The position numbers and the translations under genes were made by a program. A stretch of DNA of 64,000 bases from a virus, in IMG/VR virus record IMGVR_UViG_3300029268_000006, positions 62,001-126,000 of that record; one strand, written 5' to 3'. Position 1 is the first letter of the stretch, and each line of letters begins with the position of its first letter. This document shows, in pieces, positions 1 to 27,475 of the stretch. Under the pieces are notes generated by a model that searched no databases, was not told where the DNA came from, and saw nothing but the letters and a program-made list of their open reading frames with translations.

Positions 1-610
1 TTTTGACCCAAATTTTTCCAATTTTCCCATTATTAAATAAACCTAGATTTGTTGTGTTTTTTAATTGTGATATTTTTGATTTAATAAAATTTGGATCTTT
101 ACTTAATTCGTCATATTGATCTGCATCAATTTTTAATCTCATTGCACCTAAACGTTTCATAACTTTTCTCTTAGATAATTCGACTGAAACTACTAATACG
201 TTCGCACCACTATCTGCTGCGTTTTTTGCAGTATTATATAACCACATTGAATTATGACTCAAAATATCATTTGTCCAAAATCTATGATTTTCATCGTTTA
301 GTTGAAAATCAAACATATTTGATTTTTTATCATGAATATCTTTATAACATTTACAAACAACTTCCACACCATTTTTTGTTTGTATTTTATCACCTGATAC
401 TAAGTCTTTAACAAAAACTTCGTTCATATTTTCATCAAAAACAATATGGGTATCTGCACATATTAATTCAGATGTTTGTGTTATTAAAACCCATTCATCA
501 TATTCTATTGTTTTACCTATTGATTTGATATCTGACCAACCATTATCGGTTTCTATTTGCCATTCATCTATTTCTACTGTATCTATAAATTTTCTTTCAA
601 AATCTAACAT
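1..610 (-). CDS. Replicative DNA helicase (gp41/DnaB-like), C-terminal half preceded by C-intein; runs off window
   Basis: This is the downstream half of a fractured helicase gene. The first 120 residues are the C-terminal part of a split intein, ending in the block G motif ILSHN. The extein resumes with Ser121 (SMWLYNTAKNAAD), which completes the Walker A motif GETGVGKS begun by the fragment at 1658-2371. The following VLVVSVELS stretch fits the strand after the P-loop helix in DnaB-type helicases. The ATG lies just after the stop of the endonuclease gene at 629, behind an A-rich leader. Protein trans-splicing of the two halves should restore the ATPase that unwinds DNA at the phage fork. 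The gene continues beyond base 1, so the C-terminus cannot be judged. Confidence 0.85.
   Translation of the reverse strand, partial: MLDFERKFIDTVEIDEWQIETDNGWSDIKSIGKTIEYDEWVLITQTSELICADTHIVFDENMNEVFVKDLVSGDKIQTKNGVEVVCKCYKDIHDKKSNMFDFQLNDENHRFWTNDILSHNSMWLYNTAKNAADSGANVLVVSVELSKRKVMKRLGAMRLKIDADQYDELSKDPNFIKSKISQLKNTTNLGLFNNGKIGKIWVK
251..610 (-). other. C-part of split intein (helicase locus), 120 aa
   Basis: The segment encodes an intein C-part that is long (120 aa) because the break lies unusually early. It contains a block B-like motif (ELICADTHIVFD), a block F-like motif (NHRFWTND) and the terminal His-Asn followed by Ser +1. The last 14 residues resemble the C-part of the known gp41-1 split intein. 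Its N-part is encoded at 1658-1756. All features needed for trans-splicing are visible; activity is inferred. Confidence 0.85.
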
Positions 611-628
611 TTTTTATTTTATTCTTTT

Positions 629-1534
629 TTAACCATTCAAAAAATCTATACACGTTTGAATAGTTTTTTCTTTATGAAATTTATAATCACATTCCCATAC
701 AATTAAAATATTATATCCAACATCTTTTATAGAATCAATTTTCAATTTATCTTTTTCCCAAATTTCATATGCAAACATTTGGAGATATTTATGAAAATAA
801 TTTTTATTATATGTTTTAGGATTACAGTGCCAGTAATCACCGTTGAATTCTATTATTTTTTTATTATATACAAAATCATATGAGAATGTTTTTCCCAATT
901 CTTTAAAATGTCTAAAAAATTGTTTTTTTCCGTAATGAACATTTTCTAATTTTATTTTTTCCAAAATATTTTCAAATAATTCTAATTCTGGTCCGGAATA
1001 ATTATCATATTTAAATTTTACAAAATCACCATTTTTATATTTGGCTTCTATTTTTTCACTCCATTTATTTTGTCTATTATTCCATATTTCTAGACCTTTA
1101 ATTTCACCATATTTTTCTATACATTTTTCTAATGTGAATGTTTTTTGTCTTTCCGATACTTTATTTTTAGATTCATCTTCCGTGAATCCTTTTTTCATCC
1201 AATATAATTTTTGTGTTGGGTTTACATCAGTATATAAGTGTTTATTATCGTGTCTTTTTTTTATTGCTTTTTTAGATATATCATTTTGTATATTTTTTAT
1301 TATTTTTAATGAATCTTCATTATTAAATCCTCTTTTCAACCAAAATTCGATACTTTGTCTGGATTTTTCCTTAAAAAAATTCTTATTTTTTTCGAATGAT
1401 TTTTGTAATCCAATTGTAATTTTTTCACCTCTGTTTAATGCTCTATCATTCATTAAATCAATAGCATCTTTTTTTGATAAACCATATTTATACATAAGAA
1501 ATTCATACGTTCCTGTGGCTCTAGTTTTTCCCAA
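629..1534 (-). CDS. Homing endonuclease of the VSR-like (EDxHD) type, inside the fractured helicase gene
   Basis: The protein sits between the two halves of the split-intein helicase, exactly where free-standing endonucleases lie in published fractured genes. The C-terminal 100 residues hold a PD-(D/E)XK/VSR-like nuclease core: SYDFVYNKKIIEFNGDYWH, then EKDKLKIDSIKDVGYNILIVW and an ending shared with a decayed copy at 23926-24182. The N-terminal 200 residues are basic and helical and probably bind DNA. The listed start is TTG; no ATG exists near the 5' end. The same frame stays open upstream to base 1657 and encodes a zinc-finger-like segment, so the natural protein is probably longer. The likely role is cutting intein-free alleles to spread the split intein. 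Confidence 0.75.
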   Translation of the reverse strand: MGKTRATGTYEFLMYKYGLSKKDAIDLMNDRALNRGEKITIGLQKSFEKNKNFFKEKSRQSIEFWLKRGFNNEDSLKIIKNIQNDISKKAIKKRHDNKHLYTDVNPTQKLYWMKKGFTEDESKNKVSERQKTFTLEKCIEKYGEIKGLEIWNNRQNKWSEKIEAKYKNGDFVKFKYDNYSGPELELFENILEKIKLENVHYGKKQFFRHFKELGKTFSYDFVYNKKIIEFNGDYWHCNPKTYNKNYFHKYLQMFAYEIWEKDKLKIDSIKDVGYNILIVWECDYKFHKEKTIQTCIDFLNG

Positions 1535-1657
1535 ACACTCTTTGGAATTACATATCCTATGATACCCCCCACTTATATTAAAAAAAATTGAAGGGTTTCC
1601 ACAGTAATAACAAGTACCTTCATTTTCCTTTTTAAAGTGTTTATCATAGTATTCAAA
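1535..1657 (-). other. In-frame 5' extension of the endonuclease encoding a Cys4 zinc-finger-like segment
   Basis: Between the TAA that ends the helicase N-fragment (1658-1660) and the TTG at 1534 the same minus-strand frame is open for 41 codons. It encodes CYYCGNP followed by CNSKEC, a likely Cys4 zinc site as found in other phage endonucleases. There is no ATG, GTG or TTG in it. The endonuclease frame is also the helicase/N-intein frame, separated only by that TAA, so non-AUG initiation, stop-restart coupling or readthrough are possible. Confidence 0.5.
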
Positions 1658-22933: not shown

Positions 22934-23923
22934 TTATTTCTTTTCGTTATCGATCTTATCTGAGAAATCATCAATATAATTAATATAATCGAGAAATTTT
23001 GGTTCTCTTTTTAACGAATTTTTCCGTTCATTTGGTAAATCGATTTCAATATGACAACGAAGAGTTGCTGGATTTGCATCTAATATAAAAATATCGGTTG
23101 AAAGAAATACAGCTTCTCGAATATCATGTGTGACTAACAAAATAGTTGGGTCTAAACCATTATTATCTTGGAAGATTTTACGAAGAAATAATTGCATTGA
23201 TCGTCTGGTTACGGTGTCTAATGCACCAAACGGTTCATCCATCAATAAAATATTCGGATTAGCCACCAAATTACGAGCTATGGCAACTCTTTGTAACTGA
23301 CCCCCGGATAGTATAGGGTATTTTGCCCACTTCGATTCATGACCACTTAAACCCACAATTTTAATCATCTCCATTGCTTTCTCACGAGCTTCCTTTTTTG
23401 GTGTTCCACTTAGGATTAACGGAAGTGCAACATTATCCAAAACAGATTTCCAAGGGAATGAAGAATATTGTTGGAAAACCATCGGGATGTGATTATCGTC
23501 CTTGAGTTTTGTACCGTGAAGATAAACACTACCGGATGTTGGTTTTTGTAAACCACAAATATAACGTAATATTGTACTATTATGTGATAAAATACCATTA
23601 ACAAAAAATCTTCTTTGAGATATTTCTGTTAATTCTATATCTATCATGTTATCTTCAACTTTTGTTTCAATTATAGATATAACTTTTTCTAAACCATTAT
23701 TTGTTATAATTAAATTATCAATTTTTAAATCTTTAACAAATATTTCATTTATATTTTTATCAAACACTATATGTGTGTCTGCACATTTTAATTCGTGATT
23801 TTCGGTTTTCAATATCCATATTATATATGGAATTGTAATTGATATAGATTTAATATCAACAAAACCATCATCTGTTAATATTTCATATTCATCATTTTCT
23901 AAAATTTTAATATATTTTCTCAT
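22934..23923 (-). CDS. ABC transporter ATPase, C-terminal half preceded by C-intein
   Basis: The downstream half of a fractured ATPase of the NitT/TauT/SsuB type. About 115 residues of C-intein end in GILSHN, then Ser starts the extein STILRYICGL, completing GKSGCGKS. The remaining ATPase motifs are all present: Q-loop MVFQQYSSFPW, signature LSGGQLQRVAIARNL, Walker B ILLMDEPFGALD and H-loop LLVTHDI. I chose the ATG at 23923 because the upstream ATG at 23950 lies inside the decayed endonuclease 3' end, and the stop of that remnant precedes 23923 by only two bases, as in the helicase locus. The product powers uptake with the permease at 24989-25792 once spliced. Confidence 0.85.
   Translation of the reverse strand: MRKYIKILENDEYEILTDDGFVDIKSISITIPYIIWILKTENHELKCADTHIVFDKNINEIFVKDLKIDNLIITNNGLEKVISIIETKVEDNMIDIELTEISQRRFFVNGILSHNSTILRYICGLQKPTSGSVYLHGTKLKDDNHIPMVFQQYSSFPWKSVLDNVALPLILSGTPKKEAREKAMEMIKIVGLSGHESKWAKYPILSGGQLQRVAIARNLVANPNILLMDEPFGALDTVTRRSMQLFLRKIFQDNNGLDPTILLVTHDIREAVFLSTDIFILDANPATLRCHIEIDLPNERKNSLKREPKFLDYINYIDDFSDKIDNEKK
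23579..23923 (-). other. C-part of split intein (ABC ATPase locus), about 115 aa
   Basis: Resembles the C-intein at 251-610 along its length (shared ELxCADTHIVFD, IKSI, VFVKDL-like and ILSHN segments). The terminal His-Asn and Ser +1 needed for splicing are intact. In block F the residue matching the helicase intein His (NHRFW) is Arg (QRRFF), which might slow splicing. Confidence 0.8.
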
Positions 23924-23925
23924 TT

Positions 23926-24182
23926 TTATGTATTTAAAAATATTAAACAATCATTTATTGTTTTTTCTTTATTTTCTTTATAATCATATTCAAAACAAAA
24001 TAACCATTTTTTTTAATTTCTTCATCTCTTATTAAATCTCTTTTTTTATTTTCAGAATTTTTTCTATGAATTCAATAATTTTATTTTTATTTTTTATAAA
24101 AAAAATCCGGTTTAATTATTTTATTTTCTAATTTTAATCTATATTCATTATTTTTACCACTATCGTCTAATCTTGTGAGATG
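23926..24182 (-). pseudogene. Decayed VSR-like homing endonuclease inside the split-intein ABC gene
   Basis: Three consecutive reading frames together spell an endonuclease C-terminus: NKIIKPDFF / IKNKNKIIEF, then HRKNSENKKRDLIRDEEIKK with NGY, then FEYDYKENKEKTINDCLIFL. Each piece aligns with the intact enzyme at 629-1534 (KKIIEFNGDYWH, IKDVGYNIL, KEKTIQTCIDFL). Frameshifts lie mainly in A/T runs. The N-terminal part is gone. It lies exactly where the intact endonuclease lies in the helicase locus. Confidence 0.75.
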
Positions 24183-24300
24183 CGTATTTAAAGCTTCAAA
24201 TCAATTGAAAAAGATGAAAGACCTTGATTTAATTGGTGATAATGGAGAAAATCCTAAATCAAATAATTACAGATATGTATATAATCCTGCTAATTAAACG

Positions 24301-24353
24301 CATGGTCAAACACATGGTCAAACTGTCCATGCTCGCATGGTCATTCGCATGGT
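24301..24353. repeat. Short CATGGTCA repeats between the split halves
   Basis: CATGGTCA occurs at 24301, 24313 and 24336, with CATGGT at 24348, plus one near-inverse copy (GTCCATGC). The patch is richer in GC than its surroundings and lies in about 190 bases (24185-24375) that match neither the intein nor the endonuclease; a small foreign insertion is possible. Confidence 0.6.
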
Positions 24354-24374
24354 AGTATTTAAAGTCTTTTTTGG

Positions 24375-24986
24375 TTAATTTGGATGTTGTAAACGTTTTA
24401 TCATTTCTTCTGCTTTTATTTTTTCAATTTTTTGTGTTTTTTTATTTCTAATTGTAATAATAGAATCCATAGTAAAACACTTCCCACATCCAGATTTTCC
24501 TAAAATTGTAACAAATTGACCCCTACCTTTAATATCTTTAACACTTAAATTCAAATTTTCAAATACGACATTTTTCCCCTTAACAAGTTTTGGTGCTGGT
24601 GGTTTTAAAAACATTGAATTTTTCTTATTCGTAACATTTCCGGTACTATCAGTTTTACCCGGAACTGTTGGTAAGATAACATCATATTCTTGTTTTATAT
24701 CAACAAGATCAATGATGTTTACTTTTTCGTAATGTTGATTCGGACTTTTGACTTCAATAATATTTGTATCTTCAAAGTCATTGATAAACATTTCTGGCTT
24801 TGGTTCTGGTTTATCTTCACTTTCAATTGTTTCTGGTTCTTCAACCACTTTAGGTTCTTCAACCTTTAATTCGACCTTTAATTCATCGAATTTATTTTCG
24901 ATTTTTGATTCTTCGACATTTTCCGGTTGAACCTTTGATTCTTCAATAGGTTCGGGTTTTTTTCTATTACTAAAAATATTTCCCAT
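24375..24986 (-). CDS. ABC transporter ATPase, N-terminal half ending in N-intein
   Basis: The 203-aa product starts with an unusual acidic, Pro/Glu/Lys-rich extension of about 130 residues (many EEPK/VEE units), followed by the start of the ATPase fold (VVFENLNLSVKDIKGRG, FVTIL) and Walker A GKSGCGK at residues 163-169. Cys170 opens a 34-aa N-intein, then stop. The other half is at 22934-23923. It follows the permease gene by two bases on the same strand, so it is part of one importer operon. The acidic extension is not usual for this ATPase family and may mediate partner or membrane contacts. Confidence 0.85.
   Translation of the reverse strand: MGNIFSNRKKPEPIEESKVQPENVEESKIENKFDELKVELKVEEPKVVEEPETIESEDKPEPKPEMFINDFEDTNIIEVKSPNQHYEKVNIIDLVDIKQEYDVILPTVPGKTDSTGNVTNKKNSMFLKPPAPKLVKGKNVVFENLNLSVKDIKGRGQFVTILGKSGCGKCFTMDSIITIRNKKTQKIEKIKAEEMIKRLQHPN
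24378..24479 (-). other. N-part of split intein (ABC ATPase locus), 34 aa
   Basis: Begins at Cys170 right after GKSGCGK. Shares with the helicase N-intein the core IxIRNKKTQKIEKI-like run. Very short, as in atypical split inteins; the insertion point (between Lys and Ser of Walker A) is identical in both genes. Confidence 0.85.
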
Positions 24987-24988
24987 TG

Positions 24989-25792
24989 TTATACGTATTT
25001 GAATTTGAAACTACTTTTATCAATCCATTTGAAAAGTTTATCCGATAAATATCCGATAAAGATAATTTCCAATAAAATGGCGTACAACATATCGCTTCTA
25101 GACGCCTTTTGAATGGGGAAAGTCATACCACCCAAACCACCTTGATTATTAATCATTTCAGCAACTACAACATAAGTCCAAGAAATTGCCACAAGTACCC
25201 TGATATCATCTGAAACTCTTGATATTACCAATGGTAAATATAAATGTCTTATTTGTTGCCAACGACTAGCACCTAATGTTAGAATTGTTTGTTTGTATAT
25301 TTTATCGATTTCATCAATACGTTGTACCACCACAGGAATTAAATATACAGCGATACCAAATGCTAGGAAATGAACCTTAACACCAAAATAAATACCAAAT
25401 AAAGATATAAATATTCCGGTTGCTGCGGGTAATGGTAGGAATCGAACAGAATCAATTTGTTTACTTAATAATGATCTAAATATAGGGAATAGACCAATAA
25501 GAAAACCTAGTGGGATGGCGATTATAATTGCTTCTAAATATCCAAGAAAATTGATTGATAACGAATAACCAGTATTAGAAATTAAATTATATGTTGGATC
25601 TTTGATCATCTCACCATATGACATAAGAACGTTAATTGGATTTGGTAGGATACGACTATTAATCCAACCCATCGTTGATGTCAACAACCAAAGAAATATA
25701 AGAAGAATCCAACCAATGATTTGTGTGATGGTGGCAGTTTTTTTATCTACCTGACCATCCATTTTAAACAATTCTTTTATTTGAGAATTCAT
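24989..25792 (-). CDS. ABC transporter permease (NitT/TauT type)
   Basis: A 267-aa inner-membrane protein with about six hydrophobic segments. It carries the cytoplasmic coupling motif GASRWQQIRHLYLPLVISR (EAA loop), typical of the BPD_transp_1 family used for taurine, sulfonate, nitrate, bicarbonate or riboflavin-precursor uptake. Residues 20-45 form the first helix, preceded by a short cytoplasmic N-terminus. The gene lies between the ATPase N-half and the solute-binding gene. The substrate cannot be told from sequence. Confidence 0.88.
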   Translation of the reverse strand: MNSQIKELFKMDGQVDKKTATITQIIGWILLIFLWLLTSTMGWINSRILPNPINVLMSYGEMIKDPTYNLISNTGYSLSINFLGYLEAIIIAIPLGFLIGLFPIFRSLLSKQIDSVRFLPLPAATGIFISLFGIYFGVKVHFLAFGIAVYLIPVVVQRIDEIDKIYKQTILTLGASRWQQIRHLYLPLVISRVSDDIRVLVAISWTYVVVAEMINNQGGLGGMTFPIQKASRSDMLYAILLEIIFIGYLSDKLFKWIDKSSFKFKYV

Positions 25793-25888: not shown

Positions 25889-27475
25889 TTATCTGTTGAT
25901 GAGTTGAAATTCAGTACGGCGATTTTTTGATTTCATTTCGTTTGTACTTTCAGTTTCACACCCAACAACTGGTTTGGATGATCCATTACCAATTACAGCC
26001 ACAATATAGGATGAATTGATACCTCTTTTAATCATATAATCAGCCACCGATTGTGCCCTCTTTTTGGACAAAATGACGTTTGATTTTGGATTACCAGTTT
26101 TATCGGTATTACCTTCCAAACGAAATTTAGAACCACCAGCAACACCTTTGGCGATAGGAATAATTTCCCTATCTATTTTTTCCATTGCGTATTCATCTAA
26201 AGTGAAAGAATTAACAGCAAATTCAATGGATACTGGTTTAATTGCTGATGCTTCAGCCGTTTTGATATCTTCACTAACAGATGAAAAAACGATTTCACCT
26301 TCAGCTGAATGAATTCCACCACTCAAAGTAGTAATACCCTGAATAAGACTAGGATCAGAAACCTGACGCCAAGGGAATGGATTTTTAGCCAAACCAACTT
26401 CAGTATAAACCCTTGTCATTTTAGTATAAAGTTCATCACCGTCAACACCATTAAAGGATGAATTGAGTCCGAAGAAGTTTACATTATCACCATATGTTGA
26501 ATACCTCACTTTATACATACCATCAGCGACAACAAATTTTGGTGCGTTGAAAGCCTTCGAAAAAGTAGATGCGATACTATCATATATTGGTGGAATACTA
26601 TTTGGTTTACCATCAGACATTTTACTGATTTCATCGGTAAATATAGTAGGATCGATTTTTTTACAAAGTTCGTTAGTTTCTGCGTTGATTGTCAACCAAG
26701 CAACTGCTATTTTTTCAAAATATTTCTTTTTCTTTTCAAAAACATCTTTACGAACTATAATACCATCCATAATAATGTTACGAGCGAATTTAGTTGAAAA
26801 AATTTCATGTGAACCGGCAATGGCTGTGTAACAATCACCATCATCTGGGGACCAAACTACAGCAACGGGAACTTCACCACTTTTGAACATTTTAGCGGAT
26901 TCAATACCGTCGCCAACTTTTACCAATTCAACATCATTTTGTGTAAGACCGGCGGTTTCAAGTACCCTTAAAAGAAGTGTATGTGATGCTGTTCCAACAG
27001 CCACTGCTATTTTCTTACCTTTTAAATCAGATACACTTTTAATAGTACGAACACCAACAATAACATCGGCACCACGACTATCATCAATTTTAAGAATTTG
27101 TACAACACCTAATTTCATCAAGTCTGACATTTCTCCATTTTCGATTGGTGAAATATCGGTGGTAGTATAAATAAAATCTACCTTACCTTCTTTCAAAGCG
27201 TCAATACAATTTGAACGAACATCCATTTGTTCAATCTTCAATTTAAGACCAAACTCCTTTGTAAGACGTGATTCTTTATTCACATCTTTTCCATGATTGA
27301 GATATACAATCGGAGCAAATCCACTCCAAGTGTTAAGAGATCCTGTCAAATCGGCGGATGAATCACCTGTCAATGACTTACTGATTGTCGGCCAAAAATA
27401 AATAGATGCCGGGATTACGATGATGAGGGCGATTACCGTCCAAGTTAACCATCCAATTTGTCTTAAAAAATTCAT
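25889..27475 (-). CDS. Solute-binding protein (NMT1/SsuA-like) fused to an OmpA peptidoglycan-binding domain
   Basis: The 528-aa protein starts with a signal anchor (LTWTVIALIIVIPASIYFW) and an SBP_bac/NMT1-like periplasmic binding domain (residues about 45-390: GFAPIVYLNHG, GKVDFIYTT, LKGKKIAVAVGTASH). Residues about 410-528 are an OmpA-like domain: VSIEFAVNSFTLDEYA, LEGNTDKTGN, LSKKRAQSVADYM and NRRTEFQL, including the Asp and Arg that bind diaminopimelate in peptidoglycan. The N-terminal anchor and OmpA domain would tether the sensor between membrane and cell wall. Its leader has a true Shine-Dalgarno site, rare here, and its codons look richer in GC than neighbours. Confidence 0.85.
   Translation of the reverse strand: MNFLRQIGWLTWTVIALIIVIPASIYFWPTISKSLTGDSSADLTGSLNTWSGFAPIVYLNHGKDVNKESRLTKEFGLKLKIEQMDVRSNCIDALKEGKVDFIYTTTDISPIENGEMSDLMKLGVVQILKIDDSRGADVIVGVRTIKSVSDLKGKKIAVAVGTASHTLLLRVLETAGLTQNDVELVKVGDGIESAKMFKSGEVPVAVVWSPDDGDCYTAIAGSHEIFSTKFARNIIMDGIIVRKDVFEKKKKYFEKIAVAWLTINAETNELCKKIDPTIFTDEISKMSDGKPNSIPPIYDSIASTFSKAFNAPKFVVADGMYKVRYSTYGDNVNFFGLNSSFNGVDGDELYTKMTRVYTEVGLAKNPFPWRQVSDPSLIQGITTLSGGIHSAEGEIVFSSVSEDIKTAEASAIKPVSIEFAVNSFTLDEYAMEKIDREIIPIAKGVAGGSKFRLEGNTDKTGNPKSNVILSKKRAQSVADYMIKRGINSSYIVAVIGNGSSKPVVGCETESTNEMKSKNRRTEFQLINR

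What the first reader, a model, noticed from the sequence alone, without database searches (positions are those of the whole stretch)
22934..24986. Second split intein, in the P-loop of an ABC importer ATPase
The ATPase is broken between the Lys and Ser of GKSGCGKS, the same point as in the helicase, with related 34-aa and 115-aa intein parts. P-loops are common intein sites, but I know of no ABC-importer ATPase gene fractured this way in a phage. Two different P-loop genes in one 64-kb region sharing the intein suggest spread by homing from one P-loop site to another. Cross-splicing between the two loci would be a risk worth testing.
Basis: partly seen in the sequence, partly recalled or inferred. 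Interest (0 to 1): 0.92.

Follow-up and report, generated by a model that had tools for sequence, protein, structure and literature searches.

The report
Split intein in phage transporter ATPase
In a large phage, the gene for the ATP-hydrolysing part of a nutrient importer is cut in two exactly at its ATP-binding loop by a split intein (a protein piece that should join the two halves after translation), one member of a widespread phage intein family found at the same loop in many unrelated ATPases.

Summary
On the minus strand the ABC-importer ATPase is split between Lys and Ser of GKSGCGK|S. The N half ends in a 34-aa IntN; the C half starts with a 115-aa IntC ending in LSHN, then Ser. A collinear relative (about 77% DNA identity, C half 89% protein identity) has the uninterrupted gene. 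The insert is exactly 901 bp (23579-24479). Both gene halves are under purifying selection, so assembly error and pseudogene are unlikely.
The IntC is a HINT splicing domain; its closest solved relatives are split inteins (VidaL, gp41-1, Cat). A dead VSR-type homing endonuclease lies between the halves.
The intein belongs to a large phage family sited at Walker-A GK|S/T: DnaB-type helicase, terminase, ClpA/B (both domains), ClpX-like, SbcC-like. The same phage has three (helicase, ABC, terminase). The ABC copy is the only transporter case; 34 other related viral ATPases read here are intact.
P-loop-to-P-loop spread is supported for the family. A direct jump from this phage's helicase is not: the dead endonuclease resembles Clp- and terminase-locus ones, and the splicing-domain tree is unresolved. 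Splicing and cross-splicing are untested.

The parts
24480..24986 (-). N-extein of the ABC-importer ATPase (169 aa, ends ..ILGKSGCGK)
   Evidence: ORF; 68% aa identity over 169 codons to the intact orthologue in L005, omega 0.195
24378..24479 (-). IntN, 34 aa, starts with Cys1: CFTMDSIITIRNKKTQKIEKIKAEEMIKRLQHPN; stop codon at 24375-24377
   Evidence: Related to helicase IntN (35%, E 4e-5); 50% positional identity over 30 aa to ClpD2 IntN of L041
23924..24374 (-). 451-bp spacer between the halves with a decayed homing-endonuclease C-terminus (about 24170 to 23925); the first ~200 bp are of unknown origin
   Evidence: Frame 0: 47% over 79 aa, 61 bits, to the endonuclease of Clp-D2 split locus L187; best of 500 shuffles 38 bits; stops and frameshift in the catalytic core
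23579..23923 (-). IntC, 115 aa, MRKYIK...FFVNGILSHN; HINT fold
   Evidence: 50% identity to helicase IntC; profile hits VidaL, gp41-1, Cat; AlphaFold2 pLDDT 90.8; top Foldseek hit VidaL 6vgv, TMq 0.81
22934..23578 (-). C-extein of the ABC-importer ATPase (Ser+1; STILRY...; Walker B, LSGGQ), 214 aa plus stop
   Evidence: PF00005 E 3e-19; 89% aa identity to L005, omega 0.061; best solved relatives are nitrate-transport ATP-binding proteins
23579..24479 (-). Whole 901-bp insertion absent from the collinear relative G001
   Evidence: Alignment blocks abut at G001 55389/55384 where the own phage has about 905 extra bp; empty site printed
24989..25792 (-). ABC permease of the same importer
   Evidence: PF00528 E 2e-14; omega 0.053 to L005
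25889..27475 (-). Substrate-binding protein (NMT1-like) fused to an OmpA peptidoglycan-binding domain
   Evidence: PF09084 and PF00691
1658..2371 (-). Helicase N half with 32-aa IntN (1661-1756), stop 1658-1660
629..1657 (-). Open homing-endonuclease frame between the helicase halves (342 aa stop to stop)
   Evidence: phrog_22677 E 6e-16; weak MTES_1575 match
251..610 (-). Helicase IntC, 120 aa, ends ..NDILSHN; helicase C-extein (SMWLYN..) continues to 1 and beyond

Best explanation
It is an atypically (N-proximally) split intein that fractures a phage ABC-importer ATPase at the Lys|Ser bond of Walker A. Shown: two separate ORFs carry matching IntN and IntC parts at that bond; an intact relative is collinear; the intein family is real and P-loop-sited; the endonuclease between the halves is dead. 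Inferred: the two proteins are made separately, IntN docks into the near-complete HINT domain of IntC, Cys1 and Ser+1 carry out protein trans-splicing, and a seamless GKSGCGKS ATPase results. The element arrived by homing of a P-loop-sited cassette (split intein plus VSR-type endonuclease) from another P-loop gene; a Clp- or terminase-type locus is a likelier source than this phage's helicase. It then lost its endonuclease and can no longer move by itself.
For: Exact GK|C and HN|S junctions and IntN/IntC pair. Collinear empty-site relative and 901-bp insert. Both gene halves under purifying selection, C half omega 0.061 against 0.053 for the intact permease, so the product is still needed. IntC is a HINT domain: profile hits VidaL 1e-10, gp41-1 2e-10, Cat 3e-8; 38 of 49 family members match Pfam Intein_splicing; model pLDDT 90.8 and Foldseek top hit VidaL. 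In the 49 + 80 viral loci the extein after IntC starts with Ser/Thr and the IntN parts found follow a Walker-A-type GK. Terminase halves of the same family lie 12.5 kb apart in LR756501, which needs joining in trans. Dead endonuclease remnant: 61 bits against at most 38 in 500 shuffles, nearest to Clp- and terminase-locus endonucleases.
Against: No splicing was observed. The block-B Thr-x-x-His motif reads Ala-Asp-Thr-His in ABC; the whole family alignment has Ala at that place. The single ABC IntC does not reach Pfam's Intein_splicing on its own. The IntC tree does not resolve the donor; AU tests do not reject ABC+helicase (p 0.117) or ABC+Clp (p 0.354). No second independent assembly of the fractured ABC locus was found.
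Confidence: 0.88

Rival explanations
1. The ABC intein is a direct copy of this phage's own helicase intein, moved by homing within the genome.
For: Same genome, same K|S point, IntC 50% identical; 18 of 27 bases around the empty ABC site match the helicase site; AU test does not reject a clade of the two (p 0.117).
Against: The own helicase intein nests in a 9-row helicase-only clade (support 99/94) that excludes ABC. IntC identity to other phages' inteins is as high (53-54%). The endonuclease remnant matches Clp/terminase-locus endonucleases at 50-61 bits and the own helicase one only at about 31. IntN matches Clp-type IntN better, 15 against 11 of 30.
Confidence: 0.12
2. The split ABC gene is a pseudogene or a two-subunit ATPase in which the halves simply associate, with the intein parts inactive.
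For: Splicing not tested; endonuclease is dead, so the element is in decline.
Against: Walker A needs Lys and Ser in one chain; IntN and IntC keep Cys1, the C-terminal HN and Ser+1; purifying selection on both halves. The phage would lose its importer ATPase, the rest of which is kept intact.
Confidence: 0.06
3. Assembly artefact: two unrelated fragments joined.
For: Fractured ABC locus seen in one contig only.
Against: Complementary intein halves sit at the exact bond, flanks are collinear with an independent metagenome contig on both sides, and the same architecture occurs in tens of independent contigs at other P-loop genes. A second contig is 99.9% identical to the own contig over its helicase side, though it ends before the ABC locus.
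Confidence: 0.02

Closest known systems
Atypically split inteins with short IntN (AceL-TerL, GOS-TerL, Cat, VidaL)
   Same: Short IntN with Cys1 (Ser1 in GOS-TerL) and IntC of about 104-115 aa; GOS-TerL is 37 + 115 aa (PMC11766414). IntC profile and model match VidaL and Cat.
   Different: Host protein is an ABC-importer ATPase. In L200 and L205 an AceL-like second IntC precedes C(S/E)FLG in terminase, beside the P-loop one, so the P-loop family is a separate site. Identity to solved ones is about 20-24%.
Fractured genes with a free-standing endonuclease ORF between split-intein halves (Dassa et al. 2009; paper not held, named in the reference list of PMC11766414, content from own knowledge)
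   Same: Gene halves, IntN/IntC, and a VSR-type endonuclease between them; open at the helicase, decayed at ABC.
   Different: Short-IntN split and P-loop site, instead of the gp41-1-type split and sites.
Classic P-loop inteins (Lys|Thr/Ser), e.g. mycobacteriophage TerL1-a (PMC5050341)
   Same: Identical insertion bond in Walker A.
   Different: Those are contiguous; here split, and in a transporter ATPase.
Contiguous terminase intein of Klebsiella phage Magnus and other Ackermannviridae (MN045230)
   Same: Same family of splicing domain (32% identity), same SGK|T bond, annotated as intein.
   Different: 159 aa in one chain, no split, terminase not transporter.

Membership tests
Atypically split class 1 intein | Cys1 (or Ser1) at the start of IntN, directly after the extein | tested here: met
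   GKSGCGK|C
Atypically split class 1 intein | Short IntN (15-37 aa) and long IntC | tested here: met
   34 and 115 aa; ranges from PMC13014065 and PMC11766414
Atypically split class 1 intein | IntC ends His-Asn followed by Ser/Thr/Cys+1 | tested here: met
   LSHN|S
Atypically split class 1 intein | HINT fold | tested here: met
   IntC only: pLDDT 90.8, VidaL TMq 0.81, prob 1.00
Atypically split class 1 intein | Block B Thr-x-x-His | tested here: inconclusive
   His conserved; the Thr position is Ala in the whole family alignment A5 (A-D-x-H); the active Cat intein also varies here (S-D-N-H)
Atypically split class 1 intein | Protein trans-splicing activity | not testable with these tools
   needs expression of both precursors
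Fractured gene with free-standing homing endonuclease | Endonuclease ORF between the two halves | tested here: met
   As a decayed remnant at ABC; open ORF at the helicase
Fractured gene with free-standing homing endonuclease | Intact endonuclease able to drive homing | tested here: not met
   At ABC: stops and a frameshift in the catalytic region; so it has the layout and descent, but is no longer self-mobile
P-loop (Walker A) intein | Insertion between Lys and Ser/Thr of GxxxxGK[S/T] | tested here: met
NitT/TauT-type ABC importer ATPase | Walker A, LSGGQ, Walker B; next to permease and substrate-binding protein | tested here: met
   PF00005; permease and NMT1-like SBP adjacent; same cassette in several of the L005-L016 contigs; nearest solved: nitrate-transport ATPases

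The most novel reading that the evidence does not exclude
A phage lineage of split inteins specialised on the Walker-A motif itself moves between unrelated P-loop NTPases (helicase, terminase, Clp D1 and D2, ClpX, SbcC, and here an ABC importer), so that up to three fractured ATPase genes coexist in one phage and must avoid mispairing.
Probability: 0.5. Interest if true: 0.72.

Novelty: new member of a known kind. Interest (0 to 1): 0.6.

Why it matters
Phage inteins have been noted to cluster at P-loops, but how one lineage comes to sit at the same bond in unrelated ATPases is open. This phage holds three related split inteins at three P-loop genes, one of them with a decayed endonuclease and an empty-site relative available, so jump direction, endonuclease tolerance and orthogonality can be tested directly. 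New short-IntN split inteins are also sought as protein-labelling tools.

Tried and rejected
Assembly error: rejected by the collinear empty site and by purifying selection. Direct copy of the own helicase intein: disfavoured but not excluded. Own-genome Clp gene as donor: no AAA_2 match in this 132-kb fragment, though the genome may be larger. Other copies of the fractured ABC locus: exact junction DNA not found in viral contigs; the N half was found only in the intact relative. Literature: no paper held combines inteins with ABC-transporter P-loops; Dassa 2009 is not held. L111 looked like a second broken ABC gene: its ORF has no P-loop and no intein, so it was set aside. The origin of the first ~200 bp of the spacer was not found.

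Full report
Setting. The window is bases 62001-126000 of a 132,134-base IMG/VR virus record. The ABC locus is on the minus strand: substrate-binding protein fused to OmpA (25889-27475), permease (24989-25792), then the ATPase in two pieces.

Observation. The N piece ends GKSGCGK followed by 34 residues starting with Cys. The C piece starts with 115 residues ending LSHN, followed by STILRY.... In the intact relative L005 the same stretch reads VTLLGKSGCGKSTILRYICGLQKP without a break. Whole-contig alignment of that relative (G001, 77-81% DNA identity near the locus) is collinear on both sides. Its blocks abut where the own phage carries the extra DNA, which by the gene model is 901 bp, 23579-24479. 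901 is not a multiple of three, and the insert contains the stop of the N piece. Both ATPase pieces are conserved as protein: C half dN/dS 0.061, the intact permease 0.053, N half 0.195 (its N-terminal part is a loose linker). dS is above 1, so the ratios are rough.

The intein. The two IntC of the window are 50% identical (E 5e-34) and the IntN 35%. A search of the whole contig gave a third IntC, 38% identical to ABC's, in the terminase large subunit: N half ...ASRQSGK|C..., two endonuclease-like ORFs, IntC ...LSLN|TVSAAIV. An alignment of 49 IntC matches solved split inteins VidaL, gp41-1 and Cat, and most members match Pfam's intein splicing domain. The AlphaFold2 model of the ABC IntC (pLDDT 90.8) finds VidaL first (TMq 0.81), then gp41-1 and Cat.

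The family. Two scans of viral contigs gave 49 loci and, with a Clp-weighted query, at least 354 relatives of which the best 80 were kept. In these loci IntC is followed by Ser or Thr of what looks like a P-loop NTPase, and where an IntN was found it follows GK. By the extein sequence (assigned by eye, not by profile) these are DnaB-type helicases, terminases, ClpA/B second domain, ClpA/B first domain, ClpX-like, SbcC/gp46-like, and a small kinase-like ATPase. L041 and L045 carry a Clp gene in three pieces, with split inteins at both Walker A motifs. The two IntC of L041 are 62% identical, the clearest sign of movement from one P-loop to another. Ackermannviridae such as Klebsiella phage Magnus have a contiguous version at the terminase P-loop. 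In the 735-kb phage LR756501 the terminase halves lie 12.5 kb apart, so function there needs joining in trans.

How unusual is the ABC host? 36 viral loci encode a relative of the ATPase. Leaving out L083 (the intact L005 contig again) and L111 (no P-loop, no intein), the 34 others all read an unbroken GxxxxGK[S/T]; the weakest few are general ABC proteins rather than this importer. LR756501 (73% identical) is intact too. None of the 12 ABC-bearing records probed for the intein family carries one. I found no paper describing an intein in an ABC-transporter P-loop in the held library, which lacks many subscription papers; intein databases could not be searched.

Endonuclease remnant. The 451-bp spacer has no long ORF, but one reading frame aligns to the C-terminal, catalytic part of the endonucleases of split Clp and terminase loci: L187 47% over 79 aa, 61 bits; L160 61 bits; 500 shuffles of the segment reach at most 38 bits. 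A second frame continues into the last 24 residues, so a frameshift and stops have killed it. Relatives weakly match the MTES_1575/DUF559 (VSR-like) nuclease families. The own helicase endonuclease matches only in the last 24 residues (about 31 bits).

Origin. In the 90-row IntC tree the own helicase intein lies in a helicase-only clade (99/94) without ABC; ABC itself is unresolved. In the 40-row tree ABC fell with Clp rows (95/86) on a long branch. AU tests reject neither ABC+own helicase (p 0.117) nor ABC+Clp (p 0.354). IntN similarity (15 of 30 to Clp-type IntN, 11 to the helicase) and the endonuclease point away from the helicase. I conclude that the three inteins of this phage were probably gained separately from the wider P-loop family.

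Mechanism. From the known chemistry of class 1 inteins (own knowledge; PMC11766414): IntN docks into IntC, Cys1 takes the N-extein, Ser+1 receives it, Asn115 cyclises, and the exteins join to GKSGCGKS. Until then the ATPase lacks a working Walker A. None of these steps was observed.

Cross-splicing. IntN and IntC net charges are +4/-10 (ABC), +5/-14 (helicase) and +4/-4 (terminase), so charge alone does not separate the pairs. Exchange of IntN between GOS-TerL and AceL-TerL is known (PMC11766414). It is a fair experimental question.

Novelty. P-loop Lys|Thr insertion is called 'classic' (PMC5050341), short-IntN split inteins are known, and split-intein genes with an endonuclease between are known. 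The ABC-importer host and three P-loop fractures in one phage are additions, so I file it as a new member of a known kind.

Noticed in passing
G000:C1:37000-42116 (outside the window; L020): Third split intein of the same phage, in the terminase large subunit (SGK|T), with two endonuclease-like ORFs between the halves and IntC ending SLN instead of SHN.
   Followed up: partly
L041:936-6164, L045:448-6155: Viral ClpA/B genes in three pieces with split inteins at both Walker A motifs; D1 and D2 IntC 62% identical in L041.
   Followed up: partly
L203 (LR756501 611056-624371): Terminase halves of this intein family 12.5 kb apart in a 735-kb phage, with unrelated genes between.
   Followed up: partly
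L200, L205: Terminase genes with two intein sites: the P-loop and a second, AceL-TerL-like site before C(S/E)FLG.
   Followed up: no
window:22934-27475: Importer cassette (SBP-OmpA fusion, permease, NitT/TauT-type ATPase) recurs in many large phage contigs; the ATPase also has relatives in Lak phages and LR756501. What it imports is unknown.
   Followed up: partly
window:24175-24374: First ~200 bp of the ABC spacer has no identified origin; it holds repeated GACCATG(C/T)G motifs and a 40-codon plus-strand ORF.
   Followed up: partly
window:23576-23578: First Ser codon after the intein is AGT in the own phage but TCA or TCT in intact relatives; possibly co-conversion from a Thr (ACT) donor.
   Followed up: no
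window:31034-32641: Phage-encoded GroEL-type chaperonin (PF00118 E 2e-66).
   Followed up: no
window:14655-18806: 1383-aa protein with long tandem repeats (DMGEVFTGTEKLP, DMGQVFNGINQPPIE).
   Followed up: no
window:6200-7822: 540-aa DUF7487 protein like one of the terminase-locus endonuclease ORFs, next to a RecA/UvsX-like gene.
   Followed up: no
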